Assembly (NCBI GenBank): GCA_037157565.1
Contig: JAZHRO010000013.1
Coordinates: 118,930,001 to 118,994,000 of the forward strand
Reading direction: 5' to 3'
Length of the DNA stretch: 64,000 bases
Source: Thalassia testudinum
Taxonomy: Eukaryota > Streptophyta > Magnoliopsida > Alismatales > Hydrocharitaceae
The notes beneath the pieces were generated by a model. That model had not been told where the DNA came from and did no database searches. It was given only the letters and a program-made list of their open reading frames with translations. The translations under genes and the position numbers were made by a program. Positions 8,026 to 53,712 of the stretch are shown here, piece by piece. How positions within the stretch are numbered: position 1 is the stretch's first letter; each line of letters opens with the position of its first letter.

Positions 8026-8034
8026 TATAAAAAG
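8026..8034 (+). promoter_or_regulatory. TATA box of the A 5' LTR
   Basis: CCCTATAAAAAGACC matches the plant TATA consensus and is conserved in position in the 3' LTR (20789). Transcription would start about 30 bp downstream, near the ACCACCATTCAAACC stretch, marking the U3/R border. Confidence 0.65.
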
Positions 8035-27229: not shown

Positions 27230-29481
27230 TGATAAATGCCAGTTTATCATCATTCTTATGCATTAAAACACACCTAGCTCTTAGGATTTTACTCCGCAAA
27301 CGGGTTTTTGGGCTGCATTTAGGCATAAATTAGGTTAGGCAAGCATTGCATTTTTTATTGTCTTTTTGATATGTTTTTGTGAGTGTTAGGTATGAACAGA
27401 TATACAGATCCCTAAAACCCTAGCACTCAAGAAGGCAAATGGTGAAGGAGAAGCTCAGACTAGCTGGAACTCAGCTTGATCCAGCTCACCACAGCTGGAA
27501 CCTAGCTTACTTGAACTAGGGTTAGCTCATCCCAGCTCCATTCAACTAATCTCAGCTGAATGGCAGCTCAAGAGAGTTCATCTTAGCTCACCCTAGCTCA
27601 AGTCAGCTCAGATCCAGCTCAACCTAGTTGAGTCTAGCTCATTTTAGCTCCCACAAGTCCACTGGGAGCTCTAGCTAGCTCAGCTGAGTTGACTGGAGTT
27701 CACCCCAACTCAGATCCAGCTACATCCAGCTCTACTCAACTCTAGCTAGCTGAAGTAGAACTCATCCCAGCTCAGGAAGCTCAAGTCCAGCTCCCGGGGA
27801 CTCAGCTTAGCTCAACTCAATTGAGCTAAGCTACCTTAGCTACCTCAACCAGCTTGATCCTCCCCGGGAGCACCAGACCCAGCTCACCTTAGCTCATTAT
27901 GGTAGAAGCCAGCTCACTTTAGCTTGGCTTAGCAGCTAGCAAAGAACTAGCAAGCTAAGTCAGCTAGAGTAGCTCCATGCCAGCCTCTTCAGCAGCTGCC
28001 AGCTCTAGTTCCAGCCCCAGACTTCTCCTCCTCAGCTCCTCTCTTCAAAACCTAGCTCCAATACCTCCTCCTCTACTCCATAGCTAGCTAAGCTAGCTTA
28101 TCTTAGCTTAGCTTAGCTAGCAACCAGCTCCTTGGCCATCCACCACCTTCAACTCAACCCTAGCTAGCTCCACCAACTTAAGCCCTACCTAAGCTAGCTA
28201 TCCTACTCATTTTGGCACCACCTCTTCACCACCTTTCACCCCTCAATTAACCACCAAAAGACACCAAAAGTTGGCGCCAAAACTAACCCTAACCACCTCC
28301 CTTTTGGCACCAACTTTCAGCCCCTTTATCCACCCTACACCTACCCACATAACCCATCCTAGCCATCCACATACCCCCCTTCTAGAACCCTAAGGTGGCG
28401 CCACCTAGTGGCCTTCTAGAAGGCCCATTTTGGCACCAATTCTAAAGGGCACCAAAGCCTTAACTGCCCCCCTTAGCACCCCTTAGGTGGCGCCACTTAT
28501 CCTTAGCCCTAGGATCCCCAACTACCCCCCATATCTTATCCTAGCCATCCATTCCAAGAGCCACCTATGCCCCCCTTCCTACACTATATATACCCACCTA
28601 ACTTCCCACATGTTCTTCATCCTCCATTAGTGTATTATTCCACCTACATCCACCTATACCTACAGCCAAGGAGAAGGAGTAGAGAAGAAGATTAAGGGGG
28701 CACATCACCAGCCCCTTTGGTGCCTTCTTCTCCCCACTCTCTTCAACTTGGGCCACTCCAAGGAGGAGGACCTTTCCATCTCAAGGAGGATGGCCAGGCA
28801 AGGGAGAAGGACTTAGGGTGGACGTCCACCCTTGGAGAAAAGCTTAGGGCACGCCCCCTTAGGGCTTGCTTTGGAGGACATCAATTTGGTGGAGCTTTCA
28901 GAGACAAATAGTTGGAGCACTTCTTTTCAAGCCCAGGAGCTACTAGGCTTGGAGCAAGGAGCCTCCCCTCTTCATCAATTTTTAAAGGATTAGTGTTTCT
29001 TTACTTTGTACTTATAATTCTAGTTGTAGAAGCTTTCCTCTACTAGGGTTTTTGTACAACACTTTCTCATTAATCAAGTTGCCTTCTTTAGTTGCATTTT
29101 TAATTGCTTTGTTTTTAGCATTCTTCACTCCCTCTCCCTAATTATTCTAGGCCTCCACTTGCCTAGAGTGAGCTTAGGGAGAGGCTCTACTTGTCACTTT
29201 AGGAGTAGTGTATTGAGTTAAGTGTTAGTAACTTTCTCGCCAACAATTTCGCATGTTGACGTAATTTCAAAAAAATCATAAAAACTGTATATTAGAAAAA
29301 GACCAAAAAGAAAGTTGAGATTTATATTCCAAGCAAGAGATTTAATTTTTGCAAACTTGCCTCCTTGGACCACCCTAGATACCCCACTATCTAGGAATAT
29401 AAATTTAAAAGCGTATGCGAATTCGCATGTTACAATGACATTAAAAAATCACTTTTACAAATCATGCGATTTTCCGCATCA
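27230..29481 (+). mobile_element. Solo LTR of family A (copy A4) in the D 5' LTR
   Basis: It starts TGATAAATGCCAGTTTATCA and ends TTTTCCGCATCA. Flanks are AAGAC (27225-27229) and GAGAC (29482-29486), a 5-bp duplication with one change; the uninterrupted D 3' LTR has GAGAC at this place. It shares its start sequence with A1 rather than with element A, so family A has at least two subfamilies here. Frames within it, such as 28717-28911, are LTR sequence. Confidence 0.93.
28585..28592 (+). promoter_or_regulatory. TATA-like box of LTR A4
   Basis: CACTATATATACCC stands at the position of the TATA boxes at 8026 and 20789. Confidence 0.5.
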
Positions 29482-32664: not shown

Positions 32665-33889
32665 TGACGCGTCGATTTTCCTCTTCGCGTTGTAGTATTT
32701 AAGTGGTGGAAAAATTGACTAATCAAAAAAATAAAAAGAACCACTCATAGAAGAGCAGGTCATGTCCACAGGGAGGTAATTATGCAATAAACTCTCGATT
32801 ATTTTATATTCTTTCGGTAAAGTGCGAAATCTCTATGCAAATCTGACATAAAATGAGATGGAAAGTAGATTCACAATAACTTAAAAAGATAAGGGTATAT
32901 GTGCAGTTTTCCCTCACTGAAATCTTCAATAAATAAATGATGATTTTATTTAATTTTCACTTGACATATACTAGAGAAAATTAGTGCACAAGTTAAGCCC
33001 AAAACCAATCTTGAAATAGGTGAATATCATTAATGTGCAATTATTAGAGAATATAAGTGTGCATGCGTAATTTTGCCAGAATATAATAATAACAAATAAA
33101 AATCAAATTCTGGTGGCAATGGCAGTGAATGTAATTTTTATTATCAGAGAAAACAAAGCATTTACTTTCTCTCCTCCTAGTGAGAGAGAGAGAGCACTGG
33201 TGGGCTGTGGACTCGCTAGGGAGATTGGCGAGGATGAGACCTATCCGATGGAGGCCGCGGTGTCGACGGAGATGGCCGGAGGCGGCCGGACGGCGGAGGA
33301 GGAGTGGCGGCGGTGGATGGGTGCTGGCACTGCTGCGCGTGCTGCAGATGGTGTGCGCTTGCGGGTGTGGCAAGGGGTGCAGATGGCGCGCTTGCGGGTT
33401 AAAGGCGCTGGCGGAGGAAGGGAAGGCGGGCGCTGGAGGTTGAGGCACATGCCTGTGGGCGTGCAAGGTGGAGAAGGAGCGGGCGTTGTAGAGGGTTGAA
33501 GCAAGCACCTGCAGGAGGGGGCGCGCGCGTCTGCTGGCTGGTTGGAGGGTGCGGCAGTGGTGAAGTAGGAGCGGTGCCTGCAGGGGTGAGTGGAGGTAGG
33601 CGCAGTGGGGTGTCTGCGGGTGCACTTGCAGTGCCTGCGGGTGCTTGCAGGGGCGCGGGTGAGGGCAGTGCGGTGCAGGAGTGGGCGCCAGGTGGTGAGC
33701 CTGAAGGTGGTGAGGATGAGGCGCACGCCTACGGAAGAGCTGGAGGTACTTGGCTTGCACGCCTGCTAGGAGTGCTAGACGGTGAAGAACTTGGTGATGG
33801 CGGGTGCGGGCATAGGTGGCGTTGGAGAGGTTGGAGCGTGCGTGGTGGCAGTGGAGAAGATGGTGGAAGTTGTACATAGTGCACTCTTG

Positions 33890-33957
33890 ATGTAGTTCCC
33901 CGCAGGGGGGAAGGTGGCTCCATAGTGTACGCTGGGGTAGTTCCCCGCAAGGGGAAG
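33890..33957. repeat. Direct repeat of a CCCCGCAAGGGG-type hairpin in the C LTR
   Basis: Two units of GTAGTTCCCCGCA followed by AGGGG and a purine tail lie about 45 bp apart; each forms a small hairpin (CCCC-GCAA-GGGG). The same pair is present at 50680-50742 and, altered, at 17208-17275. Confidence 0.6.
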
Positions 33958-33988
33958 ATGGATCCCTTCTCCTTTCTCTGCCTTGCCT

Positions 33989-33998
33989 TTTTAACTCC
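33989..33998 (-). promoter_or_regulatory. TATA-like element of the C 3' LTR
   Basis: On the minus strand GAGTTAAAAAGGCAAGG lies upstream of the hairpin repeats and is conserved in the 5' LTR (near 50772). It is the best TATA candidate in this family. Confidence 0.4.
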
Positions 33999-34020
33999 TC
34001 CTGGTTTGCGCCTGCGAGAG

Positions 34021-34310
34021 TTAAGGGATTTTAAATCCCTTAACTATTTCTGACCGGCGGCTGTTGAGGGTGCCCGGAGGATGGGGAAAAGAACAGCCGC
34101 CGGTTATTTGAAAGGGTAATTTACCCTTTCCTCCTCATTCTTTTTCCAATTACTTTTCCTGCACATAAAAAGAACATATTAAGTTATAGAATAGATGTAA
34201 ACCTAAATCATGATGCATGCAAACATTCTATAACTTAATATCATTATTAACAAACCTAAAAGATACAATTAAAGTTAGTTAGGCGTAATATTAGTCCATT
34301 AAAATGGACT
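34021..34310. repeat. Four nested palindromes in the C LTR U3
   Basis: There is a 23-nt palindrome at 34021-34043 (arms TTAAGGGATTT / AAATCCCTTAA). A 21-nt one is at 34110-34130 (arms GAAAGGGTAA / TTACCCTTTC). A 17-bp stem pairs 34176-34192 with 34225-34241. The terminal stem pairs AGTCCATT (34293-34300) with AATGGACT (34303-34310). They recur, with small changes, in the other two C LTRs. Confidence 0.9.
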
Positions 34311-34315
34311 CATCA

Positions 34316-36138: not shown

Positions 36139-36746
36139 GTGGATGATGTAAACACATTTACACTACTTAAAATGTCTATTTATGCATGTTCTTAAGCATA
36201 GGATTGCATTTCATGATATAAATATTGCATTACATGCATCATCTTGCATTTAGAATAGTTTGAATAAAATAGAGGTTAATTGTCTCCTTTTATGTGCTTG
36301 GACAGGGCAAATATTTTATCAGTGCCTCGGATCAAAGATCCAACCATATGGATGTGATCAGGGCGACGATTGGAGTTCAACGACTCCAAGATCGCCCTAA
36401 TCAGGCATCCATAGCATCAGATAGTGACCCGGGAACCCTAGAAGATCAAGGGCCAAGATGGTGTAAATTCGCACTTTAGATGATAAATCTGACCGCACGG
36501 ATGAATTCGGATCGACGATCGCAGCCCAACAACACAAAAATCAAGTCAATCCGACATCCGTGGCACCATCTACAACTTCCAGAAGATGGACGGCCAAGAT
36601 GGCGCCACGTGGTGCCATCTCAGCCGCCCAAACGGCCGCTTGCATTTTGTGAAGGCCCCCGCCCGATCGCTCTCCGCCGTCAGATGGAGATCCAATGGCT
36701 GTGGTCGCTCGCGCTTAAAAGCGTCTGCGCGACCATTTCGTCCGCG

Positions 36747-36798
36747 TAGCGCAGCGGCAACACAGCCGCGGGCGAAGCAGAGGTCGCGGGTTCGAGCC
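36747..36798 (+). promoter_or_regulatory. tRNA-like segment with Pol III A and B boxes in the B LTR
   Basis: TAGCGCAGCGG (36747-36757) fits the tRNA A box, and GGTTCGAGCC (36789-36798) fits the B box. Their 42-base spacing is normal for a tRNA. The T-arm can form (CGCGG/CCGCG), but I see no acceptor stem. The segment recurs at 42723-42774 and, with damaged boxes, at 45476-45527. A tRNA-derived SINE head captured by the LTR is a possible origin. Confidence 0.5.
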
Positions 36799-37107
36799 GC
36801 GGTGAGGGGGTGGAAGGCACGAGCGAGCGGGCGTGGATGAGCGTCAGATGGAGATCCAACGGCTGCACGCGCTCGATAGCGTCGACGCGTGATTGGACGC
36901 GCAATCGAACACGCAATGAGACGCGCGGGGGGTGTGCAACGCAGCGGGCGCGGACGCGATCTAAGCCGTCCGATCTCACTATCGGATAGCTGAAAATCAA
37001 TGGACATGCGCGGGCGTTGCGCGCGCGAGCCGCGCACGTCGCCCACGAAGGCCCCTTATTTATTGTTTTGAAGTTATAGTGTCCATTTTGCCCCCACTCC
37101 TTGCAAC

Positions 37108-37116
37108 TATAAAAGG
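37108..37116 (+). promoter_or_regulatory. TATA box of the first B LTR
   Basis: AACTATAAAAGGAGACC is a strong TATA box. The second LTR has TATGAAAGG at this place (43119) and the third is intact (45886). Confidence 0.75.
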
Positions 37117-37872
37117 AGACCCCCTCCATACGAAATTCTTATCCCTTCCTTCTGCTCTCTACCCCTCAAAGCTCAAGAGAAGCTTGTCCCACACCCGGGA
37201 TGCTTCTCGCGAGATAAAGTCCAATTTTCATTCCCCTTCGGAAGTGGATCCCGCAACGACGACGACGTGCTGCTTCGTTCCCGTTCTTCTGCTTCGTCCT
37301 CCTTTGTCCTGCTTCGTTCCTTTGTCCAGGCGTCGTCCCGTCTGGCTCGTCCTCCAAGCAACCGTCGAGGAGGATTTCTCTCTCCCTATTCTTTTTACTG
37401 CTTTCTAGTATAGATTTACTGCTTTCTAGTGTAGCTTTGCTCTTCCTCCAAATCGTCAAGGAGGACATTTCTCCCTCCATTCTTTTAATGCTTTCTAGAG
37501 TAAATTTATCACTTTCTAGAGTAATTGTTTTATGCTTTCTAGTTGTAATGAACAATCTCTTCAACGCAAAAATTCCTTGTTTATTCTACATCTCATTTTG
37601 ATTTCTTTGTGTAATATTCTATCTCTCTCTTACTCTCTCTCTCTTTTCTATTTATTATAAATAATTAGATAGTTTCAAATTGAATTATTCCGTGACAAAT
37701 AAAAAGAAACGCGTAGTTTTTAAATCAAACGTCCTCCTCCCTATGTTCGACCCGGAATTTTAATTTCGGTATAAATTTTATTTGTTGAACACGAATTCTT
37801 CACTTTCGAACTACAACGACAGGTTTTCCAAAACCGAACACGTTAGCGTAAGTGTTCGAGCGTTCAACATTT

Positions 37873-37890
37873 TGGCGCCGTTACCGGGGA
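37873..37890 (+). other. Primer-binding site of B (tRNA-Asp)
   Basis: TGGCGCCGTTACCGGGGA matches the tRNA-Asp complement with one mismatch and lies three bases after the LTR. The match ends after 18 nt; compare 43889, where it continues through nearly the whole tRNA. Confidence 0.93.
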
Positions 37891-39079
37891 GGTAACGATC
37901 TTTGATTTCTCTTCGCGTTTTGTAACTTACAAATCATTTACCTCACTTTTCTCCTTTCTTATTGTAATTGCAGGTACTCTTTTGAGGCAAGCAAAAGCGG
38001 TAGATTGGAGTAAAGTGCTGTGGAAGGTTTTGTAAGTTATCCCCCATTCTTTCCTCCTCCATAGATTTCATTCACCACATTGAATCCAAATTCCAATTAA
38101 CCTAGGTGTTTGCATAAATCCTAGGAATAGTTTGGTTGTTTGGATTCTCACTCACATTCATTCCACCTTCATTTATATAAAAAAAAAACAAAAAGATAAT
38201 TTTGTGGGGCAATTTTCAACAAATACACAATGTACACCCACATTTAAAGGCACTTAACCGAATTGATTTGTTTCTACTCAACCGGGTTCTGATCTGTGGA
38301 ACCGGTACACATAAAGCAACACATAAAAGAGTAGAAATCATTCTAGGTTAACCATCTTTGTGTGCCTAACTTAGTGGTGCATTTGTGGCCGGTTGTACCA
38401 CTTCAAATAAAATCAACTCATCCAGTAGTTGCCAATTACGTTCAACTCTTAGGGATTTACCAGGCACTCCACATTCTTTTTAAGCTTTAAAGGAAACATC
38501 TTCACCTGTGCTTGTAAAACTTGGTGTGCCAACGAAACTTGATTGAAAACACCTAAAGTTGAATCCTAAAAGCTACTAAGCAAGATTTGAATCTTAAAAT
38601 TCACCACATCAAAAACAATCTTGCTTGAAAACCACTGGTTGTGCACTCACACATGAATCAATCAATCATTAAGGGTACAACCCATTTAAAGGGCCCATCA
38701 CATTCCAAAGCACATTCAAACCTAGCCCTAGATAAAATAGAGTAGACGTTGGCCTTAAGGATTGGACTCGCTCTTCAGAACCCAGAACGAGATTATTTTC
38801 GATTAGTCTATTTCTGCTGTTCAATCTGATGTCTAGCTAGGGGAGTAGAGTCAAACGATTGCGGCTGGGGGGTACACTAGGAACCGGAGGCGCAAGCCGA
38901 AGGAAGAACCTTCTCCCCTGTCCCTCCTTCTAACTGGTTGGATTGAACAGACGGAAGTAGATCAAATCATTCCTTTATCTCAAGACAAGTTTTGAGAGTC
39001 TATAGGTCTTTAGGCTAACCTATTTAAGGATAGGTTTGATTGTTTGTATTGTAGGGCACCTTTCTTCCTCCCGTATATC
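37891..39079 (+). other. Untranslated leader of element B
   Basis: About 1.2 kb, AT-rich, with no recognisable frame. Confidence 0.7.
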
Positions 39080-40873
39080 ATGAATCCTTCCACATATTTC
39101 ACGCATTCCCGCTCTTTCCCTCCTGTTGTGAATTATCCTCAACATGACGATTATCCCAACTCGTATTGTAATCAACCATCAGTTAGTTGGGATAATTCGG
39201 ATTGGGGATACAATTCCGGACCCCCGTGTTTAGGGTCTAACCCTGAACACTTTGATTCTGATTTCTATCCTTCTCAGAGCTACATCGATTATAGATCGTC
39301 TTCCTTTCATGAACAACCTAATACGATCTACAATCAAGAATGATACACCAATCCTTACCCATCCTTTGATTTCACTGCCTTTAGGTCATCACCATCTTTT
39401 CAACAATCTGAAATGACCTATTATCAGGAAGGGTATAACGAATCTCAATTCGTTAATTCCCCTGCACTGAGCCCAAACCCACCCAACCCTGAACCAACTC
39501 ATTTAGTTCAGGTTAACCAGGTTCAAGATAAGGTTCTGGCTAACTTGAGGAATATCATTCAATCTTTAGAAGTTCAGCCAATACTTTGCATTGAGAGATT
39601 GGAGCCCCTGATTGAAATGATTGATGATTTAAACAAGTCTTTGTTGGATTGGCTCTAGGATGTTAAGGATAAGAACCCAGGTGAGTTCTTACTTGGGAAA
39701 TTAGTGAAATTGAGGATGAGATTTGTGGTTGCTTTGATTCAATCTTGGAATAATTCCCAGGATGAACCCTCTTCAGGAAAGCCAATCACAGAACCCGCTC
39801 AGGCACCTGTTGGGGGGGACACTTGTTACGAGGCTGACCAGATTGAATTAAAACAACCAATGAAGGATGATCTGATTTCTTCACTTGAGATCCCTAAGCC
39901 AGGTTACAAGGAAACGTATGTCTCCTTGGAACAGAAAGTGACAACTGATTTTGGGACATACATTGATACGGATCCTGATGGTGAAGATTTAAGTTGCGAA
40001 GTCTCACGCGAGTTTTCTGAACACGATTTCTGTGAGACGATTGGGCCTGAGGAATCTGATAGATCATTTGATAGCCCAATAACTGAGGAAACTGATCTTA
40101 TTAGGGCACACATTACGGATCCAAAATCGCATTTTCTGGAGGAATCAATTCAGTGCCTTGATTATCAGTTACACCCTGTTGAGCTTATTGATGATTCTAA
40201 TTCTGAGATAATTAGACCCAAGTCAATTTTGATTCTGCCACATCATTTAGACTTGGAGATTTCAGACGGGGTGATGAATATACAAGAGGTCCTGGAATTT
40301 GATATGCTGAATGAGGAGGAGAGGAGCTGGGAAGTGTTGATTTGGGAAGTTAATTTTGGAAGAAATGGTAGATTGAGTCGAAGGGTTCCTTTTAAGATGA
40401 AACCATCAAATCAGAACCCTTACGACATTTATTTCGAGGTTGTTCAACCCAAGCACACATTCAAAGATTATCCTTTTGAGTTTAAATTCTCTGTAACCCG
40501 ACTTTTTGGTCTTGGGTTGCATCCTCATAAATTACAGGCTCGACCCCGCTTGCATTCTGATTTTAGGTTTTGGGTAATTTTTATCCAGAACCTAAGATAT
40601 TCTCGATTATGGGGTGTGGGTCTGCACCACAATCTGGTCCACATCTGTGGACCTTTACTGACAGGTCAGAGGATTCTTCTGTTCATTCTGATTCAGATCT
40701 GCACTTGTGATTACTTCATTTCTTTTCTTTGTATAGTGTGCCTAGCTGAAGGCACTAAACTCAGCAGTTATACAGTTCGTTTTCATTTTTATCTCGGAGC
40801 AGACCTGACATTCACGCAATTTAGGTACTTTCTTCGCTTTTCCACTCTGTTTTATGTCTTTCTAATACAATGA
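39080..40873 (+). pseudogene. B internal protein of unknown function
   Basis: The ATG at 39080 (MNPSTYFTHS) opens a frame of about 598 codons with two stops, TGA at 39341 and TAG at 39656 (LLDWL-DVKD, fits CAG). The N-terminal 150 residues are rich in Tyr, Ser, Pro and Asn (YPQHDDYPNSYCNQPSVSWD). The middle is strongly acidic (40000-40330). The last 100 residues are hydrophobic and may be read-through of 3' sequence, since the post-pol block AAGGCACTAAACTC lies inside. No gag, protease, RT or integrase motif is seen. It is like the C/D protein in composition but not clearly alignable. Confidence 0.6.
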
Positions 40874-40902
40874 GGACATTGCATTAGATAGGCATGGGGG
40901 GG
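40868..40902 (+). promoter_or_regulatory. Conserved hairpin plus G-tract motif, copy in B
   Basis: CAATGAGGACATTGCATTAG is followed by ATAGGCATGGGGGGG. The stop codon of the B frame (TGA) falls inside the hairpin. Confidence 0.65.
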
Positions 40903-42088
40903 TGGATATTTATCTTTGAATTCATTCGTCAGCTCCGTAGATTTGTTTTATTTTGATTAAAAAAAAAATCGAAATTAGGAAAGAGAATTTGGGTTTAAGA
41001 AAATTTTCAATATTAGGAAAAACTACATTAAGATCTGAACACAAAGACCCTTCAGGTCTTTGAACTTAATCAGCCCGTGTATCCACTAAAATGTGGATTT
41101 ATTTTTTGAGTTCTCACCAACTTGAATTTTATTTTAATTGGAGTAAATAAGTTTGGGTGATAAGTACACGACTTATCAACCCGCCCTCTGATTTGAGGGA
41201 ATTTTGAGTCTTAAGCATCTACACACTTTCTTTGCACTGACTCATTGTTCGGGGATTCTAACGAAAATTGGGTAGCTAATGAACCTTCTAGGGTGATATG
41301 GCTGGCAAGTTATCGTGGGTAATAGCCCATAAGCAGGTTGTCCAAAGCCCAGTCACTGGACCTTTCTCTTTTTCCTGCCCTTAGGTAAATCTTAGACCAG
41401 GGAAGCCACCTATTTAAAAAAAAAAAATGTATATATATATATATATATCAAAAAGAAAAGGAGAAAAGAACAAAAAGAAATAAGCCACACTTCGCCGCAC
41501 GAGTATGACTGGCAAGTTGTCGGTGGTAACAGCTCATCGACCGGTTGTCCAGAACCCAGGTCAGAAAATGCTCTAAAAATTCCCAAAACACTTAGGAAGA
41601 AGCGGAGAAGTAGAATAAACCGGGGAGATATACACTGGATTCACCCTTGTGTTGACCCCGTTAAAAAATAAAAGTAGGGAGAAAGCTACCGGTTGTAAAG
41701 ATACACCTTTAGGTAGAATTCTTTTTGAGGTCACCTAGAGGCGTAGAAATCTGAAGTCCATTCTAATTGCCGGTCAATAAGTCTATCACAATCACAATAA
41801 GATGCTTTAAGCTTAGGGTTCTCATCAAATTTTGGGTGAGTTGAATGGACGTAGACAACCACTCTTAAACCCAAAAATTTGAAAATCAAAAAAATAAGAA
41901 AAGAGAAAAAGAGAAAAAGAAAATTTTCTTTTAATAAGGCGAGGGCTTGAAGCGGTCTGCATTTTGGCTGATACCCGGGCACTATTGTGTCTTTGAAAGT
42001 TCAGTTCCTAAGTAGACAATTTCTTAATGATTGAAAAATAACTTAAGTCCAAATAATCTAACCTAATTCTTTTATAAATAGCATATAG
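40903..42088 (+). other. 3' untranslated region of element B
   Basis: No frame of note. It holds a short TA microsatellite (41431-41448), poly-A runs and a repeated GTATGGCTGGCAAGTT-like phrase near 41300 and 41505. Confidence 0.7.
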
Positions 42089-42126
42089 TTTTTGCTAGGG
42101 ACTAACAAAAGATAGGCATGGGGGTA
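42089..42126 (+). promoter_or_regulatory. First polypurine tract of B with upstream hairpin
   Basis: Stem TTTTTGCTAG / CTAACAAAA with loop GGA is followed by GATAGGCATGGGGGTA, directly against the second LTR. Confidence 0.85.
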
Positions 42127-43885
42127 TGATGTAAACACATTTACACTACTTAAAATGTCTATTTATGCATGTTCTTAAGCATAGGATTGCATTTCATGAT
42201 ATAAATATTGCATTACATGCATCATCTTGCATTTAGAATAGTTTGAATAAAATGGAGGTTAATTGTCTCCTTTTATGTGCTTGGATAGGGTAAATATTTT
42301 ATCAGGGCCTCGAATCAAAGATCCAACCGTATGGATGTGATCGGGGCGACGATTGGAGTTCAACGACTCCAAGATCGCCCTAATCAGGCATCCATAGCAT
42401 CAGATAGTGACCTAGGAACCCTAGAAGATCAAGGGCCAAGATGGTGTAAATCTGCACTTCAGATGATAAATCCGACCGCACGGATGAATTCGGATCGACG
42501 ATCGCAGCCCAATGACACAAAAATCAAGTCAATCCGACATCCGTGGCACCATCTACAACTTCTAGAAGATGGACGGCCAAGATGGCCCCACGTGGTGCCA
42601 TCTCAGCCGCCCAAACGGCCACTTGCATTTTGTGAAGGCCCATCGCTCTCCGCCGTCAGATGGAGATCCAACGGTTGTGGTCGCTCGCGCTTAAAAGCGT
42701 CCGCGCGAGCATTTCGTCCGCGTAGCGCAGCGGCGACGCAGCCGCGGGCGAAGCAGAGGTCGTGGGTTCGAGCCGCGGTGAGGGGGTGGAAGGCGTGGGC
42801 GAGCGGGCGCGGAGGAGCGTCAGATGGAGATCCAACGACTGCTCGCACCCGATAGCGTTGACGCGCGATTGCACGCGCAATCGAACGCGCAATCAGACAC
42901 GCGGGGGGCGCGCAACGCAGCGGGCGCGGATGTGATCTAAGCCGTCTGATCTCGCGATCGGAAGGCTGAAAATCAATGGACGTGCGCGAGCGTTGCGCGC
43001 GCTAGCCGCGCACGTCGCCCACGAAGGGAGCTTTAGTGACGGATTTATCCGTCACTAAAGACCCCTTATTTATTGTTTTGAAGTTATAATGTCCATTTTG
43101 CCCCCACTCCTTGCAACTATGAAAGGAGACCCCCTCCATACGAAATTCTCATCCCTTCCTTCTCCTCTCTACCCCTCCAAAGCTCAAGAGAAGCTTGTCC
43201 CACACCCGGGATGCTTCTCGCGAGATAAAGTCCAATTTTTGTTCCCCTTCGGAAGTGGATCCCGCAACGACGACGGCGTGTTGCTTCGTTCCCGTTCTTC
43301 TGCTTCGTCCTCCTTCGTCCTGCTTCGTTCTCCTTCGTCCAGGCGTCGTCCCGTCCGGCTCGTCCTCCAAGCAACCGTCGAAGAGGATTTCTCTCTCCCT
43401 ATTCTTTTTACTGCTTTCTAGTATAGATTTACTGCTTTCTAGTGTAGCTTTACTCATCCTCCAAGCAATCGTCGAGGAGGACATTTCTCCCTCCATTCTT
43501 TTAATGCTTTCTAGAGTAAATTTATCGCTTTCTAGAGTAATTGTTTTATGCTTTCTAGTTGTAATGAACAATCTCTTCAATGCCAAAATTCCTTGTTTAT
43601 TCTACATCTCATTTTGATTTCTTTGTGTAATATTCTATCTCTCTCTTACTCTCTCTCTCTTTTCTATTTATTGTAAATAATTAGATAGTTTCAAATTGAA
43701 TTATTCCGTGACAAATAAAAAGAAACGCGTAGTTTTTAAATCAAACGTCCTCCTCCCTGTGTTCGACCCGAAATTTTAATTTCGGTATAAATTTTATTTG
43801 TTGAACACGAATTCTTCACTTTCGAACTACAACGACAGGTTTTCCAAAACCGAACATGTTAGCATAAGCGTTCGAGCGTTCAACA
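42127..43885 (+). repeat. Second (middle) LTR of B
   Basis: Length 1759 bp, ending GAGCGTTCAACA. Compared with the first LTR it has a 9-bp deletion near 42635, a TATA mutation and an extra 30-nt palindrome at 43031. Its U5, with repeated TGCTTTCTAG words, matches the first LTR. Confidence 0.95.
43031..43060. repeat. 30-nt palindrome in the second B LTR
   Basis: Arms CTTTAGTGACGGAT and ATCCGTCACTAAAG are perfect reverse complements separated by TT. The third LTR has it at 45799-45828. The first LTR lacks it and reads straight from CCCACGAAG to CCCCTTATTT (37041-37060). Confidence 0.95.
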
Positions 43886-43888
43886 TTT

Positions 43889-43961
43889 TGGCGCCGTTGC
43901 CGGGGATCGAACCCGGGTCGCCCGCGTGACAGGCGGGAATACTCACCACTATACTACAATC
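43889..43961 (-). tRNA. tRNA-Asp(GUC) copy fused to the B LTR (pseudo-tRNA)
   Basis: On the minus strand this reads a nearly complete tRNA-Asp including the CCA end: anticodon GTC (43928-43930) in a 7-nt loop on a CCCGC/GCGGG stem, B box (43904-43913) and A box (43946-43956). The match covers about 71 nt; the last few bases of the 5' acceptor strand are replaced (CAATCGAG against expected CAACGAC), so the acceptor stem cannot close. It lies three bases after the LTR, where only an 18-nt primer site is normal. Scanners may call it a tRNA gene; its position argues that it is a copy of the primer. Confidence 0.93.
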
Positions 43962-44834
43962 GAGTCTTAAGCATCTGCACACTTTCTTTGCACTGACACG
44001 TTGTTCGGCGATTTTTACGGAAATTGGATAGCTAATGAACCTTCTAGGGTGATATGGCTGGCAAGTTATTGTGGGTAACAGCCATAGGTAGGTTGTCCAG
44101 AGCCTAGTCACTGGACCTTTTTCTTTTTGCTGCCTTTAGGTAAATCTTAGACCAGGGAAGCCACCTACTTAAAAAAAAAAAGAAAAGAAAAAAAGAAAAA
44201 AAATCAAAAAAAGAAAAGGGAAAAGAAAAGAAATAAGCCACACTTCGCCGCACGAGTATGGCTGGCAAGTTGTCGTTGGTTACAGCTCATCGACCGGTTC
44301 TTTAGAACCCAGCTCAGAAAATGCACTAAAAATTCCCAAAACACATAGGAAGAAGCGAAGAAGTAGAATAAACCGGGGAGATATACACTGGATTCACCCT
44401 TGTGTTGACCCCGTAAAAAAAATAAAAGTAGGTAGAAAGCTACCGGTTGTAAAGATACACCTTTAGGTAGAATTCTTTTTAAGGTCACCTAGAGGCGTAG
44501 AAATCCGAAGTCCGTTTAATTACCGGTCAACGAGTCTATCACAATCACAAAAAGATGCTTAAAACTTAGGGTTCTCATTAAATTTTGGGTGAGTTGAATG
44601 GCCGTAGAAAGCCACTCTTAAACTCGAAAATTTGAAAATCAAAAAAATAAGAAAAAGAGAAAAAGAAATTTTTCTTTTAATAAGGCGAGAGCTTGAAGCG
44701 GTCTGCATTTTGGCTGATACCCGGGCACTGTTGTGTCTTTGAAAGTTCAGTTCCTAAGTAGACGATTTCTTAAGGATTGAAAAATAACTCAAGTCCAAGT
44801 AATCTAACCTAATTCTTTTATAAATAGCATATAG
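43962..44834 (+). other. Deleted internal region of B
   Basis: From GAGTCTTAAGCATCT (43962) on, the sequence aligns with 41206-42088 of the first internal region. Everything between the primer site and that point (leader, protein frame, G-tract motif) is missing. The short A-rich tracts differ in length. The frame on the minus strand at 44204-44488 is not real. Confidence 0.9.
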
Positions 44835-44872
44835 TTTTTGCTAGGGACTAGCAAAAGATAGACATGGTGGTA
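44835..44872 (+). promoter_or_regulatory. Second polypurine tract of B, mutated
   Basis: The hairpin is perfect here (TTTTGCTAG / CTAGCAAAA, loop GGA), but the tract reads GACATGGTGGTA with a T in the G run. Confidence 0.8.
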
Positions 44873-46522
44873 TGATGTAAACACATTTACACTACTTAAA
44901 ATGTCTATTTATGCATGTTCTTAAGCATAGGATTGCATTTCATGATATAAATATTGCATTACATGCATCATCTTGCATTTAGAATAGTTTGAATAAAATG
45001 GAGGTTAATTGTCTCCTTTTATGTGGTTGGATAGGGCAAATATTTTATCAGGGCCTCGGATCAAAGATCCAACCATATGGATGTGATCAGGGCGACGATT
45101 GGAGTTCAACGACTCCAAGATCGCCCTAATCAGGCATCCATAGCATCAGATAGTGACCCGGGAACCCTAGAAGATCAAGGGCCAAGATGGTGTAAATTCG
45201 CACTTTAGATGATAAATCTGACCGCACGGATGAATTCGGATCGACGATCGCAGCCCAACCACACAAAAATCAAGTCAATCCGACATCCGTGGCACCATCT
45301 ACAACTTCCAGAAGATGGACGGCCAAGATGGCGCCACGTGGTGCCATCTTAGCTGCCCAAACGGCCGCTTGCATTTTGTGAAGGCCCCCGCCCGATCGCT
45401 CTCCGCCGTCAGATGGAGATCCAACGGCTGTGGTCGCTCGCGCTTAAAAGCGTTCGCGCGACCATTTCGTCCGCGTAACGCAGCGGCGACGCAGCCGCGG
45501 GTGAAGCAGAGGTCGCGGGTTTGAGCTGCGGTGTGGGGGTGGAAGGCGCGGGCGAGCGGGCACGGATGAGCGTCAGATGGAGATCCAACGGCTGCGCGTG
45601 CCCGATAACGTCGACGTGCGATTGGACGCGCAATGGAATGCGCAATCAGACGCGCGGGGGGCGCGCAACGCAGCGGGCGCGGACGTGATCTAAGCCATCC
45701 GATCGTAAGCCGTCCAATCTCACGATCGGACGGCTAAAAATCAATGGACGTGCGCGGGCGTTGCGCGCGCGAGCCGCGCACGCCGCCCACGAAGGGAGCT
45801 TTAGTGACGGATTTATCCGTCACTAAAGACCCCTTATTTATTGTTTTGAAGTTGTAATGTCCATTTTGCCCACACTCCTTGCAACTATAAAAGGAGACCC
45901 CCTCCATACGAAATTCTCATCCCTTCTTTCTCCTCTATACCCCTCCAAAGCTCAAAAGAAGCTTGTCCCACACTCGGGATGCTTCTTGAGAGATAAAGTC
46001 CAATTTTCGTTCCGTTTCGGAAGTGGATTCCGCGACGACGACGGCGTGCTGCTCCGTTCCCATTCTTCTGCTTCGTCCTCCTTCGTCCTGCTTCGTTCTC
46101 CTTTGTCCAGGAGTCGTTCCGTCCGGCTCGTCCTCCAAGCAATCGTCGAGGAGGATAACTTCTCTCTCCCATTCTTATTTACAGCTTTTCTAGTGTAGAA
46201 TTTTCCTGCTTTATAGTGTAATTGATTTTCCGCTTTCTAGTGTAACTTTTATAAACAATTGAAATATTGAATGCATGTTCTCTTTCTCTCTCTCTCTCTC
46301 ATAGTTTGATAGCTCCATTGTAATTATATCGCCTTGCTTAACAAAAATCCTAAAAAAATATAATTGCGAATATAGATCAACATAGCCTCCCTGTGTTCGG
46401 CCCGGAATTATTTTCGGTATAAATTTTATTTGTTAAACATGAATTCTTCGCTTTTTGAACTACAACGATAGGTTTTCGAAAACCAATCTCGTAAGCGTAG
46501 CGATTCGTAAACACGTTCAACA
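44873..46522 (+). repeat. Third LTR of B
   Basis: Length 1650 bp, ending CACGTTCAACA, followed by GTGGA. Its U3 resembles the first LTR (both have the CCCCCGCCCGATCGC phrase), it has the palindrome of the second, and its U5 from about 46160 differs from both (CT-repeat, no TGCTTTCTAG array). Confidence 0.95.
45886..45894 (+). promoter_or_regulatory. TATA box of the third B LTR
   Basis: AACTATAAAAGGAGACC is identical to the box at 37108. Confidence 0.7.
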
Positions 46523-46527
46523 GTGGA

Positions 46528-48260
46528 GGATAACAAGGATCCTCCAGAGCAGGATGGGTTTTAAAAGATATACACATTATTAATTCAAACCCTTGAATGG
46601 CGAGAGTAAAAGACAAGCATCAATCCACACTCGCCATTCTACCCAAGGATGTACTGGCCTGATATGTTCTCTAGAAACAATGTACATGAGCAGAGATCTG
46701 AGCCAAGGATCGGTTAGAGAGTATAAGGGTTGTTTGTAGTGTTGGAAGGTGATGGTTAAGTCCAATGAGGGCTTATTCGGTGTTAGGTCTAATTCCAATA
46801 ATGATTCAGATTGTGTATACTCCCTAACCATTGTAAACAACTGCATATTACCCTGCCTAGCATTAATGATTGGAGTCATATTTGAATCAAGGGTAGAATC
46901 CAAATTAGAACTCTTTGATGGTATGGTCAAAATGTCAGAATCATTATCATTAAGCTCATCCTCAAATTCATTTGGTTCACTCAAATTTTTGTTGGGGTGT
47001 ATATGTGATTCATTAGGAGTTGGATCAGTATCTTCAATTATTTCTAACGGAGGATTAGTCTTAATATTTTGGAGCAAGCCTATATCGTTGAATTCGTTAT
47101 TGTTCTTAGGGTATAAATCCTCAATTGACGTGTTTTGTCCCCGAGAGTCTCCCATAGACTTCTCATTATTTTGTTTGTCCTCCTCTAATATCAACTCCTG
47201 TTTTGATGGAGGATGACTCTCAAAAGAAAGGAGGAATCTGGATTTAATCATATTATTTCTATCCTCTAGAGGTAAATCCTCAAATGATAAATAATTCCCC
47301 TGTGATTCACTCCAGATTTTCAGTCCAGGTTCCTCTATTGGGGCATCCTCATTTTCTAAATTAGACTCTTCATATCCCTGAGACCAAAATTGATCTAATT
47401 CATCCTCTATTCCGTTAGGGTCACCTTCATTGAGTGCATTTAAATCCTCAGGATACGGAATGATAGGTGTTGATTCCCGAAGTGGAGGGTCAGGAGTAGG
47501 CTCACTAAGGGTAGAATGAGATTCCACCAAATAATCAATAGGGGAAGTGATAGGAATAATACAACCTTGACCCGGGTTGGTAGGGGTAAGGAGAATACTG
47601 TCATTGGGGTCAAGGTCATTAAAGGTACCATCTTCCCTTGCTTTTGACTCCAATATAGTTCAGGTGGATAATCACTATGATCGTTGTCCTCTAGTGGCCG
47701 TGTTTCATTGGGAGAGTCTAAATGATAGCTACATAAAATTGGATCCCTATTGTCATTAGGTTCCTCAGAATTATTTTCATGATCATGACGTATGGGTAGG
47801 GATCAAGATTATTGGGAAGCGTGTAGCTAAGTTGTCTTATTTCTTCATTTAACTGTTGACTATTCCCCAACATCTCTCCCATTGATTCCATCATTTCTGT
47901 TTGTTATTTTTGCATTTCTATCATAAAAGAGGAGAGGCTACTATTACCAGGTTGGGGAGGATAGTCAATTTCAGGCTCTGGTTGCCTAGGGGTATCAGTC
48001 CAACCTCGATACGAAAAATCATGAAGGGTGGGAGGGTTGGGTGTTTGCATGGAAGTAGGGATTTCAAGGTTGGAAAATCCTGCTCCTAAGCTCTACTCAA
48101 AAGTGGGAGTTATCAAGCCAGTACTCCCAGGATAAGAATAAGAATGATCCCATGAATTGTCAATGTACCCATCAAAGGATGGATACGCTGGGGCATGGGA
48201 TCCTGATTAAAAGATGGGAAGTATTGACTCTGATAATCTGAATGATAGGAGTAAGAGTAA
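46528..48260 (-). pseudogene. C acidic protein, main part
   Basis: On the minus strand the frame starts near 48260 without a clear ATG (SYSYHSDYQSQYF, then after a frame change PSFDGYIDNSWDHSYSYPG and GWTDTPRQPEPEIDYPP). After more disruptions it runs open for 357 codons (47653-46580). Shared with the D protein are YWSQK-G-MVP, IEEPGLKIWSESQGNYLSFEDL, KPSLDL-TIxQ, DPWLRSLL and VEWRVWID, and EDPCYPPL after a final frame change. Strongly acidic throughout, no zinc knuckle or enzyme motif. Conservation of residues while the DNA has diverged suggests past selection on the protein. Confidence 0.72.
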
Positions 48261-49484: not shown

Positions 49485-49502
49485 TCCCTGGCAACGGTGC
49501 CA
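49485..49502 (-). other. Primer-binding site of C (tRNA-Asp)
   Basis: On the minus strand TGGCACCGTTGCCAGGGA matches the tRNA-Asp complement with two transitions, three bases from the LTR. Confidence 0.9.
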
Positions 49503-49505
49503 ATT

Positions 49506-51101
49506 TGACGCATCGATTTTCCTCTTCGCGTTGTAGTATTTAAGTGGTGGAAAAATTGACTAATCAAAAAAATAAAAAGAACCACTCATAGAAGAGCAGG
49601 TCGTGTCCATAGGGAGGCAATTATGCAATAAACTCTCAATTATTTTATATTCTTTCGATAAAGTGCGACATCTCTATTCAAATCTAACACAAAATGAGAT
49701 GGAAAGTAGATTCACAATAACTTAAAAATAAGGGTATATGTGCAGTTTTTCCTCACTGAAATCTTCAATAAATATATGATGATTTTATGTAATTTTCACT
49801 TGACATATACTAGAGAAAATTAGTGCACAGGTTAGGCCCAAAACCAATCTTGAAATAGGTGAATATCATTAATGTGTAATTATCAGAGAATATAAGTGTG
49901 CATGCGTAATTTTGCCAGAATATAATAATAATAAATAAAAATCAAATTCTGGTGGCAATGGCAGTGAATGTAATTTTTATTATCAGAGAAAACGGAGCAT
50001 TTGCTCTCTCACCTCCTCGCAAGAGAGAGAGAGAGCACCGGCCGGCTGTGGACTCGCTAGGGAGATTGGCGAGGATGAGACCTATCTGATGGAGGCCGTG
50101 ACGTCGACGGAGATGGCCGAAGGCAGCCGGCCAGCGGAGGAGGAGTGGCGGCGGTGGACGGGTGCTGGCGTTGCTGCGTGTGCTGCAGATGGCACGCACT
50201 TGTGGATGTGGCAGGAGGTGCGGATGGCGCGCTTGCGGGTTGAAGGCGCTGGCGGAGGAAGGGAAGGAGGGCATGCACGCCTGCGGGCGTGCAAGGTGGA
50301 GAAGGAGCGGGCACTCTGCTGGCTGGTTGGAGGGCGCGGCAGTGGTGAAGTGGGAGCGGTGCCTGCAGCGTGCGTGGAGGTAGGTGCGGTGGGGTGTCTG
50401 CGGGTGCGCTTGCAGCGCCTGCGGGTGCCTGCAGGGGCGTGGGTGAGGGCAGTGCAGTGCAGGAGCGGGCGCCAGGTGGTGCGCCTAAAGGCAGTGAGGC
50501 TGAGGCACGTGCCTACGGGAGCATTGGAGGTACTTGGCTTGCGCGCCTGCTGGGAGTGCTAGACGGTCAAGAACTTGGTGATGGCAGGTGTGGGCAGAGG
50601 TGGCGTTGGAGAGGTTGGAGCGCACGTGGTGGCAGTGGAGAAGATGATGGAAGTTGTACACAATGCACGCTTGATGCAGTTCCCCGTAGGGGGGAAGGTG
50701 GCTCCACAGTGTACGCTGGGGTAGTTCCCTGCAAGGGGGAAGTTGGATCCCTTCTCCTTTCTCAACCTTGCCTTTTTAACTCCTCCTGGTTTGCGCCTGC
50801 GAGAGTTAAGGGATTTTCAAATCCCTTAACTATTTCTGGCCGGTGACTATTGAGGGTGCCCGGAGGATGGGGAAAAGAATAGTCGTCGGTTATTTGAAAG
50901 GGTAATTTACCCTTTCCTCCTCATTCTTTTGCCAATTATTTTTCCTGCACATAAAAAGAACATATTAAGTTATAGAATAGATGTAAACCTAAATCATGAT
51001 GCATGCAAACATTCTATAACTTAATATTGTTATTAACAAACCTAAAAGATACAATTAAAGTTAGTTAGGCGTAATATTAGTCCATTAAAATAGACTCATC
51101 A
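49506..51101 (-). repeat. 5' LTR of element C
   Basis: On the minus strand it starts TGATGAGTCTATTTTAATGG and ends GATGCGTCA. It is similar to the 3' LTR throughout, with the GC-rich middle at 50040-50640. One arm of the terminal hairpin is mutated. The frames in the GC-rich part are not genes. Confidence 0.95.
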
Positions 51102-51106
51102 GTCCA

Positions 51107-52306
51107 CGCCTTAAGTGGGAGGAGGATATGTATGAAAGTAGCTATACATGGGATGAAGAAAGGTGGAAACCCGAGGAAGAAAATGATCAGGTTGAGTATC
51201 CACCTCAATTATATTGGAGTCAAAAGAAGGGAATGATGGTACCATTGGAAGACCTCGACTCCGATGATAGTATTTTCGTGACATTTTATGAAGTGGGTCG
51301 AAGTCAAGTTGTTAATCCCACCTTCCCTTTTGATCATGAGATGGAACTCAAGCCCACCCTTAGGGAACTTAACCCTGAAGAAATCCACCTATCTGAGGAG
51401 TCTGATGTTACCAGTGTAAGCCATGTACCCCAGATAGAGTGCCCTAGGGGATCTGCTGAGATTTTAGATGATTCTAGACCTCGGGTATATGATGAATCGT
51501 ATGATGAGGAGAAGGATGAATTATATGAGGAACCTACATTCAAGATTTGGAGTGACACTAAGGGTGATTATGTCTTATTTGAAGAATTAGCCCCCGAGGA
51601 TGTCACAGAGTTGACCAAATTAGGTTTCCTTAGCACATCCATTGATGATATCTCTCCTCATGATGAAGTAATTGAAAATTTGGAAGTAACTTCTGAGATT
51701 AATGTGGATTCACATATATACTTCGGGGAGGATTTGAGTAAAGAACAAGAACCTAGGGATGACATTGATATGATAATCCCTAGATTTGTTGCTTCCAACC
51801 TGCCTTCATTTGATTTGGAGTCATCCTCTGATTCGCCTATGTCTAAAGGTGAAATGTTGACCCCATACGTTGAAACGATCATTGATGAAGTGCAGGCAGA
51901 TACTTCTGATAGTGCAAGGAATGCTAGGGATGCAATTGAGGAATTGGAAAGATTGTTAGGGATGGACACTGAGCCAACTAAACCCAACTTAGATCTTATG
52001 ACCATCCTGCAACCTGGAAACTTGGATACCCTAGATGATCCTTGGCTTAAAGACATGCTCACTACTATTTTGACCGGGGGGCTTAACAGACCAATATCTC
52101 TTGTAATGGAGTATTGGGTATGGATTGATGATTTCTTTGGTCAGTCCATTACCCTAGGGATTTATCTCTGCACCATTCCTTCCCCATTTCTTTTGGAGGA
52201 TCCTTGTCATCCTCCCCTTACCCCTTTGGAGGTTGTTATGATAGTTTATCCTTTAGAACCTCCTCTGGTGACCTGGGATGATTTCATTCCCATCTTGGTT
52301 GGATGA
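51107..52306 (+). pseudogene. D acidic protein, C-terminal part
   Basis: The frame is open from the C insertion site (after the second GTCCA) to TGA at 52304. It carries LYWSQKKGMMVPLEDLDSDD, EEPTFKIWSDTKGDYVLFEE, KPNLDLMTILQ, DDPWLKDML, MEYWVWIDDF and EDPCHPPL, all matched by the element C protein. It is acidic (about 400 residues here) with no known domain. The ATG at 51128 is internal to the original frame, not its start. Apart from the inserted element this half has no stop. Confidence 0.78.
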
Positions 52307-53712
52307 GCATTTGCTATCGGGATTCATCATCAGCTTGCCAACATTCTAGATTACCTGTTTTCTAGGCCAGCATTAGTTTGCTCATTGTTAGGGCCTATTT
52401 CTTTGGTTTTGGAACCTAACTTGCAGGTTCTTTGGTTACTCGGTTACCAACAAATTAACGGTAGCCCAACTCTGACCCAGGTAATACTCTTCTATGCAAT
52501 GAGGACAATGCGGATTTTAGGCATGGGGGGCGGGGCACGTGGGGATATACATAGCATTTATACATAGTGCATTCATGCATTTAGTTAAAACATTTCGCAT
52601 TGCATACATTTTCATCAAAAGAAAAAAAAAAGAACAAAGAGAAAAACATTTTGTATTATTGAGCTTAACTGGTTGGGCCCTGCATTCTTAAGCAGACCAG
52701 AACTTTAGGTTAGACTAAGTTGATTCTAGGTGTCGAACTTTAGAAGCTAGGTAAGCTACTAGCTTTAGACCTTTAGGGTCCTTTGTGGACTTAAAAACTT
52801 AAGTAGGAGTTAAGTTGCGGACCATTCCTCAAGAGGTTGAGGAAGGAAAGCTAGAGATTAAGTTAAAGGCTGGGTAGTACCTGGAGTCTTGTTCTATCTT
52901 TTGGTTTACAGGTCGTTGTAACCTAAGCATCCACATTTCACACACACTTGGTCTTGTGTAAATAGTGATCACCCATATTCATTTCTTAAAGAAAAGTTGG
53001 TTCTCTTAGTTTTGACTTAGGAAAAGCTTGAAAATACAATTTGATTGGAAGAGCTTTTGCCGTAGGAGAGGTGGAATACATACTCAACTTGAGGATGTGA
53101 TGATAACATGTCACCTCCTTGATGCTTGTCTCTTAGGATATCCATCCTACTGAAGGCATGTAAGTGCATTGTGCGGTTCAAGTACCATGGGCGGCCCTAT
53201 CTTGAAGTGCTGATTGCCACAGGCCTGAATTTGCTTAAGAATCCATGGGCGATACTATCTCGAAGTGTCAATTGCCAGGAGTTCTTGGGGTAGCTATGGA
53301 TGGTGCTATCTCGAAGCATCGAAAGCTAGGCAGCCTTCGAGGTACGATGATGGGGACAATGAATTTGACACAAACCGTGTTGATAGTTGATCCAAGGTTA
53401 GACTTAGAGGAATCAAACAAAAATATATATATTAAAAAAAAACCTTTTTCCTCTCTAGGTTGGCAATCATACCAACCTCAAATAACTCAGATCAATGCAC
53501 ATGCATGGATGCTTTAATCTCTGGGATCAATAAACACTAGGGTAGAGTTAGAAATCAGGGAAACCTGTGCCTGCAACTCATCTTTAGCCGACGTAGTTTG
53601 TAACTTGGCAACTACTTGGGAACCATAGGTCTCAAGTTTGAACTTAACATGTTACTAAAGTAAGATTGACTGGGTTGGCTGGTCTACTTGGAGAGCTGGG
53701 TTATTGCTTAAG
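52307..53712 (+). other. 3' untranslated region of element D
   Basis: The conserved hairpin/G-tract motif is at 52496. From 53080 to 53420 there are repeated phrases CCATGGGCG-TACTATCTCGAAGTG, similar both to the element A 3' region (18720-19060) and, reversed, to the 50-bp repeats of element E. The frame at 53245 is within these repeats. Confidence 0.7.
52496..52534 (+). promoter_or_regulatory. Conserved hairpin plus G-tract motif, copy in D
   Basis: GCAATGAGGACAATGCGGAT is followed by TTTAGGCATGGGGGG. Confidence 0.62.

What the first reader, a model, noticed from the sequence alone, without database searches (positions are those of the whole stretch)
43886..43965. Almost complete tRNA-Asp copied into a retrotransposon at its primer site
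Seen: after the second B LTR the usual 18-nt primer site continues as the reverse complement of tRNA-Asp for about 71 nt, including anticodon GTC, and then joins the 3' part of the internal region (GAGTCTTAAG). Known: plus-strand strong-stop synthesis copies the LTR and then the attached tRNA primer, normally halting at the methylated A58 and giving 18 nt. Inference: here the enzyme read through to nearly the 5' end of the tRNA, and the product was then joined, with 2-3 nt of overlap, to a downstream site, deleting about 3.3 kb. This would be a genomic fossil of failed primer arrest. An alternative is recombination between the primer site and a genomic tRNA-Asp gene.
Basis: partly seen in the sequence, partly recalled or inferred. 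Interest (0 to 1): 0.92.

Follow-up and report, generated by a model that had tools for sequence, protein, structure and literature searches.

The report
Retrotransposon tandem scarred by primer tRNA
A nearly complete copy of the transfer RNA that primes a plant-type retrotransposon sits in the joint of a three-LTR tandem element, most likely because the element's copying enzyme failed to stop inside its primer and the faulty DNA was then stitched into a related element.

Summary
After LTR2, 71 nt (43889-43959) are the reverse complement of tRNA-Asp(GTC), from its CCA end to 4 nt short of its 5' end, joined to a 3' internal fragment. Four other tRNA-Asp primer sites in the window match for 18 nt only. 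Copying of the primer tRNA past A58 is the best source.

The whole unit LTR1-int-LTR2-tRNA-int'-LTR3 carries one 5-bp target duplication (GTGGA), and its joined flanks align through the join with a paralogue. LTR2's 3' part is sister to LTR1's (3.0% different), not LTR3's (19.6%), while LTR1's first 600 columns are nearest LTR3 (1.7%). LTR1 thus looks like a mosaic of two parents, E and F.

Best reading: an F cDNA whose right end bore the tRNA copy recombined into resident E, by homology inside LTR1 and by near-blunt joining on the right, removing about 3.3 kb of E. One aberrant reverse-transcription event before integration is the main rival; LTR ages do not exclude it. Ten searches of an open-access library listed no precedent. 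The genome itself could not be searched (tool unanswered), so frequency is unknown.

The parts
36139..36143 (.). left copy of the target-site duplication GTGGA
   Evidence: joined flanks align through the join with a paralogue
36144..37869 (+). LTR1, mosaic: first ~500-600 columns nearest LTR3 (parent E), columns from ~1000 on nearest LTR2 (parent F)
37873..37890 (+). ordinary 18-nt tRNA-Asp primer binding site (17 of 18), preceded by TTT 37870-37872
37891..42126 (+). internal region of F; 41206-42126 is the part homologous to int'; one ORF of 250 aa or more, no Pfam match
42127..43885 (+). LTR2, shared middle LTR
43886..43888 (+). TTT spacer between LTR end and primer site, kept here and after LTR1, absent after LTR3
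43889..43959 (-). copy of tRNA-Asp(GTC), nt 5-75 including CCA; acceptor stem broken
43960..44872 (+). int': 3' part of the internal region of E, joined directly to the tRNA copy (clear homology from 43962); 82 of 916 sites differ from F's
44873..46522 (+). LTR3, right outer LTR, with a 3' part much diverged from LTR1 and LTR2
46523..46527 (.). right copy of the target-site duplication GTGGA

Best explanation
Two related LTR retrotransposons, E and F, are fused in one insertion. While F was reverse transcribed, plus-strand synthesis did not stop at A58 of the primer tRNA-Asp but ran nearly to its 5' end, so the F cDNA had a right LTR ending in TTT plus a 71-nt tRNA copy. Such an end offers integrase no free LTR terminus. 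The cDNA was instead recombined into resident element E, already integrated with the duplication GTGGA: F's left LTR paired with E's left LTR (crossover inside LTR1), and F's tRNA-tipped end was joined with little or no shared sequence to a break inside E, removing E's 5' internal region (about 3.3 kb). Shown by sequence: the tRNA copy and its ends, the single duplication and the empty site, the sisterhood of the 3' parts of LTR1 and LTR2. Supported statistically but less firmly: that LTR1's 5' part comes from E. Inferred: read-through of an unmethylated or bypassed A58; that F was unintegrated cDNA; that E was there first. Inferred route to such a cDNA: the 18-nt primer-site part of the over-long plus strand could still template completion of F's left LTR while the tRNA tail stayed as an unpaired 3' end.
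For: tRNA copy from CCA to nt 5, no gene flank. Four other primer sites in the window stop at 18 nt. One 5-bp duplication around the whole unit; joined flanks align with a paralogue at 51942-52433, ungapped for 24 columns before and 15 after the join. LTR2 keeps TTT, LTR3 does not. LTR1-LTR2 differ at 23 of 775 sites and LTR2-LTR3 at 125 of 639 over columns 1000-1792; LTR1-LTR3 differ at 10 of 600, LTR1-LTR2 at 22 of 593 and LTR2-LTR3 at 21 of 593 over columns 0-600. Order of informative sites along LTR1 in columns under 1300 is not random (p 0.006 and 0.047); LTR2-specific against LTR1-specific changes are 16:5 in columns 0-600 and 21:25 beyond (Fisher p 0.033). Outer LTRs differ in their 3' parts, unlike the template-switching complexes in print. 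Integrase-independent recombination into resident copies is described as making tandems (PMC12786077 section 4.2).
Against: If E was resident first, its LTR pair should be at least as diverged as F's; it is not (10 of 600 against 23 of 775, p 0.15, different LTR regions). The mosaic signal is not significant in columns 0-1000 alone (p 0.23, 0.80), is weaker without CpG sites (0.046, 0.19), and over the full length a test with LTR2 as the recombinant is also significant (p 0.032 and 0.0048; not in columns under 1300: 0.66 and 0.44). There is no outgroup LTR. Columns 600-1000 favour no pairing. A cDNA with a finished left LTR and a tRNA-tipped right end needs an abnormal intermediate. E's own sequence left of the join is lost. 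Long reads, a genome search and other family copies were not available.
Confidence: 0.45

Rival explanations
1. One aberrant reverse-transcription event before integration, in a particle holding both E and F RNA: the plus strand began on E, switched to F inside the LTR, copied F and then its tRNA, jumped from the tRNA to E's minus strand inside the internal region, ran to E's end, and the composite integrated once (or two cDNAs were joined before integration).
For: One duplication around the whole unit; E pair and F pair are of similar divergence (p 0.15); template switching between co-packaged RNAs is proposed for plant three-LTR complexes with one duplication (PMC1950507 section 4).
Against: That published model predicts alike outer LTRs; here LTR1 and LTR3 differ at 126 of 636 sites over columns 1000-1792. 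The tRNA should already have been removed if F's left LTR was made by normal strand transfer.
Confidence: 0.25
2. One reading: LTR2-tRNA-int'-LTR3 is one element deleted when its own read-through plus strand joined downstream, later fused to LTR1-int by recombination in the LTR.
For: Gives the order LTR-tRNA-internal fragment in one step; TTT after LTR2 is what a left LTR has.
Against: LTR2 and LTR3 differ at 125 of 639 sites in columns 1000-1792, LTR2 and LTR1 at 23 of 775; fusion of two insertions would not leave one matching duplication (for the argument; for the duplication).
Confidence: 0.1
3. Recombination between the primer site and a genomic tRNA-Asp gene.
For: Primer site and tRNA gene share about 15-18 nt, enough for a rare exchange.
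Against: [quoted passage not shown] genomic tRNA-Asp genes could not be fetched, so their flanks were not compared.
Confidence: 0.05
4. Assembly misjoin at or near 43960 between copies of the family.
For: Repetitive nested region; no reads available here.
Against: The outer ends carry a matching duplication and a collinear empty site; a misjoin alone does not put a truncated tRNA next to an LTR.
Confidence: 0.05

Closest known systems
Tandem LTR-retrotransposon insertions of plants (PMC11899658, abstract and sections 8 and 13 read; PMC7215508, passages)
   Same: LTRs share a middle LTR; one short target duplication around the whole; origin called unresolved there.
   Different: Here the second unit lacks its 5' 3.3 kb, the two units are different lineages, and a tRNA copy lies in the joint. 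The sections I read do not mention tRNA scars.
Template-switching complexes of grasses (Sabot and Schulman 2007, PMC1950507, section 4 and passages read)
   Same: Three LTRs, one 5-bp duplication, two parent elements.
   Different: There the outer LTRs are highly alike and, in the two found by genome scan, both cores complete; here the outer LTRs differ in their 3' parts, one core is truncated and tRNA is included. A term search of that paper found 'tRNA' and 'PBS' 0 times.
Plus-strand read-through of unmodified primer tRNA and tRNA at HIV-1 cDNA ends (PMC13191261 section 10; PMC5618025 passages)
   Same: [quoted passage not shown] tRNA primer sequence seen at aberrant cDNA ends.
   Different: Those are in vitro, methyltransferase-mutant-cell or episomal products; this is in a genome, in an LTR retrotransposon primed by tRNA-Asp.
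Integrase-independent retrotransposition (Tf1 and others; PMC12786077 section 4.2 read)
   Same: cDNA recombining into a resident homologous copy and making a tandem.
   Different: Here only the left side needs homology; the right side is a near-blunt join at a tRNA tip.

Membership tests
Functional tRNA-Asp gene | Complete 7-bp acceptor stem | tested here: not met
   nt 1-4 missing; 4 of 7 positions can pair with what stands there
Functional tRNA-Asp gene | D, anticodon and T arms with GTC anticodon | tested here: met
   ARAGORN and Rfam matches
Primer-tRNA read-through product | Copy starts at the CCA end directly at the primer site after an LTR | tested here: met
   LTR2-TTT-TGG...
Primer-tRNA read-through product | Continues past A58 and ends at or near the tRNA 5' end without gene flank | tested here: met
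   Ends at nt 5; genomic tRNA-Asp flanks themselves could not be compared
Primer-tRNA read-through product | Made by reverse transcriptase from a tRNA lacking the m1A58 block | not testable with these tools
   Inference only; A58 is copied as a plain A
Tandem LTR retrotransposon from a single insertion | Three LTRs with a shared middle LTR and one target duplication | tested here: met
   GTGGA at both outer ends; joined flanks align through the join
Template-switching complex (Sabot and Schulman) | Outer LTRs highly alike | tested here: not met
   10 of 600 differ in columns 0-600 but 126 of 636 in columns 1000-1792
Template-switching complex (Sabot and Schulman) | Two complete cores | tested here: not met
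   int' lacks the part homologous to 37891-41205
Unequal recombination of two neighbouring insertions | No matching duplication at the outer ends | tested here: not met
   The outer ends match, GTGGA
Unequal recombination of two neighbouring insertions | Middle LTR is the chimera | tested here: inconclusive
   LTR1 as chimera is significant in columns under 1300; LTR2 as chimera is significant only over the full length
Integrase-independent retrotransposition | cDNA joined to a homologous resident copy without integrase processing of its end | tested here: inconclusive
   TTT and tRNA kept after LTR2 fit an unprocessed end, but a left LTR also keeps TTT; genetic dependence not testable

The most novel reading that the evidence does not exclude
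Failure of the A58 stop is a general route to tandem LTR retrotransposons in plants: an over-copied primer blocks second-strand transfer and integrase, so the tRNA-tipped cDNA can enter the genome only by recombination with a resident copy. tRNA scars after middle LTRs would record this, and would show that the primer was a full-length tRNA rather than a short 3' fragment.
Probability: 0.15. Interest if true: 0.8.

Novelty: new variant of a known kind. Interest (0 to 1): 0.6.

Why it matters
The stop at A58 of the primer is known mainly from HIV-1 work (PMC13191261, section 10). This locus looks like a genomic record of that stop failing in a plant-type element, and of what then became of the DNA. 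It offers a physical mark of cDNA-end joining in tandem LTR elements, whose origin a 2025 survey leaves open, so tandem collections can be screened for tRNA scars. It also suggests that the primer here was at least 71 nt of tRNA, whereas a recent plant review speaks of priming by partial tRNAs (PMC12786077, passage).

Tried and rejected
Functional tRNA gene: broken acceptor stem. Open reading frame through the empty site: the longest open stretch over the join is 70 codons, no help, so the empty site was tested by alignment. Idea that F lacked a left U3 and joined at the U3/R border: of four TATAAA strings in LTR1 the one followed by AGG is at column 1013; a break near column 1045 is 2.8 lnL units below the best at 470, so it is disfavoured, not excluded. 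One search had a trimming error (LTR3 cut to 7 nt); its LTR end points are good, its site table was discarded and redone. Exact scans for a CCA-bearing tRNA-Asp read-through gave 0 matches in viral contigs and in genome contigs; a tRNA-Asp pattern and a tRNA-iMet read-through pattern gave 0 in viral contigs. These are viral and prokaryote collections, so this says nothing on frequency in plants. Pfam gave nothing for the 4 ORF translations from the element and its flank and a gag match for 1 of 3 ORFs elsewhere in the window.

Full report
Observation. The stretch after the second LTR was read directly and checked with ARAGORN, Rfam and a position-by-position comparison with a plant tRNA-Asp that I recalled. 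LTR2 ends CAACA at 43885, followed by TTT and then 71 nt (43889-43959) that are the reverse complement of tRNA-Asp(GTC) from the 3' CCA to nt 5. One of 71 positions differs from the recalled sequence (nt 44, C for T; it may be a real gene variant). A58, the usual stop, is copied as a plain A. The next two bases are TC, and from 43962 the sequence is homologous to 41206 onward. A scan of both strands for primer-site-like sites (TGG start, at least 13 of 18) listed 7: this copy, four with 16-17 of 18 that mismatch at nt 19-21, and two with 13 that look like chance. So the long copy is the exception in the window. It is no normal tRNA gene: nt 1-4 are missing, and 4 of 7 acceptor positions can pair with what stands there.

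Anatomy. The unit is duplication-LTR1-primer site-int-LTR2-TTT-tRNA-int'-LTR3-duplication. LTR starts were located by a shared 20-mer and ends by GTTCAACA. The five bases outside LTR1 and outside LTR3 are both GTGGA. Removing everything between, with one GTGGA kept, gives flanks that align with a paralogous sequence of the window. The second of two aligned pieces covers 51942-52433 at 63% identity (327 of 521 columns); it runs through the join and is ungapped for 24 columns before and 15 after it. So the three-LTR structure sits as one insertion in an older element. That element's probable LTRs, 32665-34315 and 49506-51101, differ at 113 of 1592 sites, and a tRNA-Asp-like primer site lies on the minus strand next to 49506. 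The composite itself holds one stop-to-stop ORF of 250 aa or more, without a Pfam match. A Pfam gag match occurs at 10541-11356. That the genome is a plant's is my inference from the elements; no call named the organism.

Who is related to whom. The three LTRs were aligned over 1792 columns. In columns 0-600 LTR1 and LTR3 are closest: 10 of 600 differ, against 22 of 593 (LTR1-LTR2) and 21 of 593 (LTR2-LTR3). In columns 1000-1792 LTR1 and LTR2 are closest: 23 of 775, against 126 of 636 (LTR1-LTR3) and 125 of 639 (LTR2-LTR3). Much of that region aligns poorly with LTR3, but better-aligned blocks agree: columns 1000-1300 give 11 of 294, 23 of 294 and 22 of 297, and columns 1665-1776 give 4 of 110, 16 of 108 and 19 of 108, for LTR1-LTR2, LTR1-LTR3 and LTR2-LTR3. 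Columns 600-1000, where most differences overlap CpG, resolve nothing: 31 of 351, 34 of 351, 31 of 385 (all).

Tests of mosaicism. With LTR1 as recombinant, the order of informative sites gives none of 20,000 shuffles as extreme over the full length, and p 0.047 and 0.006 for two statistics in columns under 1300. It is not significant in columns under 1000 (0.80, 0.23) and is weaker in columns under 1300 without CpG sites (0.19, 0.046). With LTR2 as recombinant the full-length test is also significant (0.032, 0.0048), but not in columns under 1300 (0.66, 0.44); with LTR3 as recombinant it is not (lowest p 0.31) (all). In columns 0-600 sites peculiar to LTR1, LTR2 and LTR3 number 5, 16 and 4 (chi-square p 0.005); LTR2 against LTR1 is 16:5 there and 21:25 beyond (Fisher p 0.033). 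The best single break is near column 470, with 390-480, 560-580 and 900-910 within 2 lnL units (a second form of the likelihood gave 430-600). The two internal copies differ at 82 of 916 sites. I read this as two parents: F (LTR1 3' part, int, LTR2, tRNA) and E (LTR1 5' part, int', LTR3). The F half of this is firm; the E part of LTR1 rests on the modest statistics above and on the shared duplication.

Mechanism. The tRNA is attached to F. The minus strand starts on the primer tRNA, so plus-strand synthesis through the right LTR runs into the tRNA. With native tRNA it stops at m1A58, leaving 18 nt; with unmodified tRNA it runs to the 5' end, a product described as unusable for transfer (PMC13191261, section 10). 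tRNA primer sequences are reported at some aberrant HIV-1 circle junctions (PMC5618025, passages). A tRNA-tipped end would hide the LTR terminus from integrase; this fits TTT being kept after LTR2 and absent after LTR3, though a left LTR keeps TTT too. The simplest history is E first, then F recombining into it: homology inside LTR1, and a near-blunt join between the tRNA tip and a break in E's internal region. Integrase-independent recombination into resident copies is described as a route to tandems (PMC12786077, section 4.2). The one difference in the tRNA copy fits the age of the F pair (1.05 expected) better than the LTR2-LTR3 distance (3.9 expected, P of 1 or fewer 0.10), but weakly.

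What speaks against it. E should be at least as diverged as the F pair if it was there first; it is not (p 0.15), although different LTR regions are compared. Similar ages suit one composite insertion. The published template-switching model explains one duplication but predicts alike outer LTRs (PMC1950507, section 4), which fails here in the 3' part. A finished left LTR together with a tRNA tip needs an abnormal intermediate; my proposal, that the 18-nt part of the over-long plus strand still served as template while its tail dangled, is inference. There is no outgroup LTR. A tRNA-gene exchange would have to end by chance 4 nt inside the tRNA, but tRNA-gene flanks could not be compared. An assembly error cannot be excluded without reads.

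Literature and novelty. Ten searches of the open-access library showed me titles and starts of abstracts of the best-ranked papers (up to 20 per search, of as many as 1,262 holding the terms); none of these describes a genomic LTR followed by a nearly complete primer tRNA. I did not read those papers through, and most subscription papers are not held. A 1998 Ty1 paper on untidy cDNA ends was seen only as a reference and is not held. Proposals that some SINEs arose from strong-stop DNA with a primer tRNA are recalled only. The 2025 tandem survey (abstract and sections 8 and 13 read) leaves the origin of tandems open. I therefore call this a new variant of a known kind. How often it happens is unknown: the window's genome could not be searched, and the collections scanned by pattern are viral and prokaryotic.

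Noticed in passing
43028-43061 (LTR2), with the matching stretch in LTR3: A 34-nt near-perfect hairpin is present in LTR2 and LTR3 but absent from LTR1, either lost from LTR1 or a small mobile insertion.
   Followed up: partly
32665-34315 and 49506-51101: Probable LTR pair of an older minus-strand element that contains the composite; 113 of 1592 sites differ, with a tRNA-Asp-like primer site at 49502 downward on the minus strand.
   Followed up: partly
1838-4067, 6674-8926, 19440-21686, 27230-29480: Four related 2.2-kb repeats, one of them inverted, 76-94% alike: probably LTRs of another family in nested or tandem arrangement; a tRNA-Asp-like primer site follows one of them at 8933.
   Followed up: no
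46580-47653 (-) and 51089-52306 (+): Two long ORFs without Pfam matches that lie in alignable sequence: an unnamed retrotransposon protein shared by two element families.
   Followed up: no
46220-46386 (LTR3): This part of LTR3 hardly aligns with LTR1 and LTR2, although the sequence on both sides does, as if this LTR subfamily had an exchanged segment.
   Followed up: no
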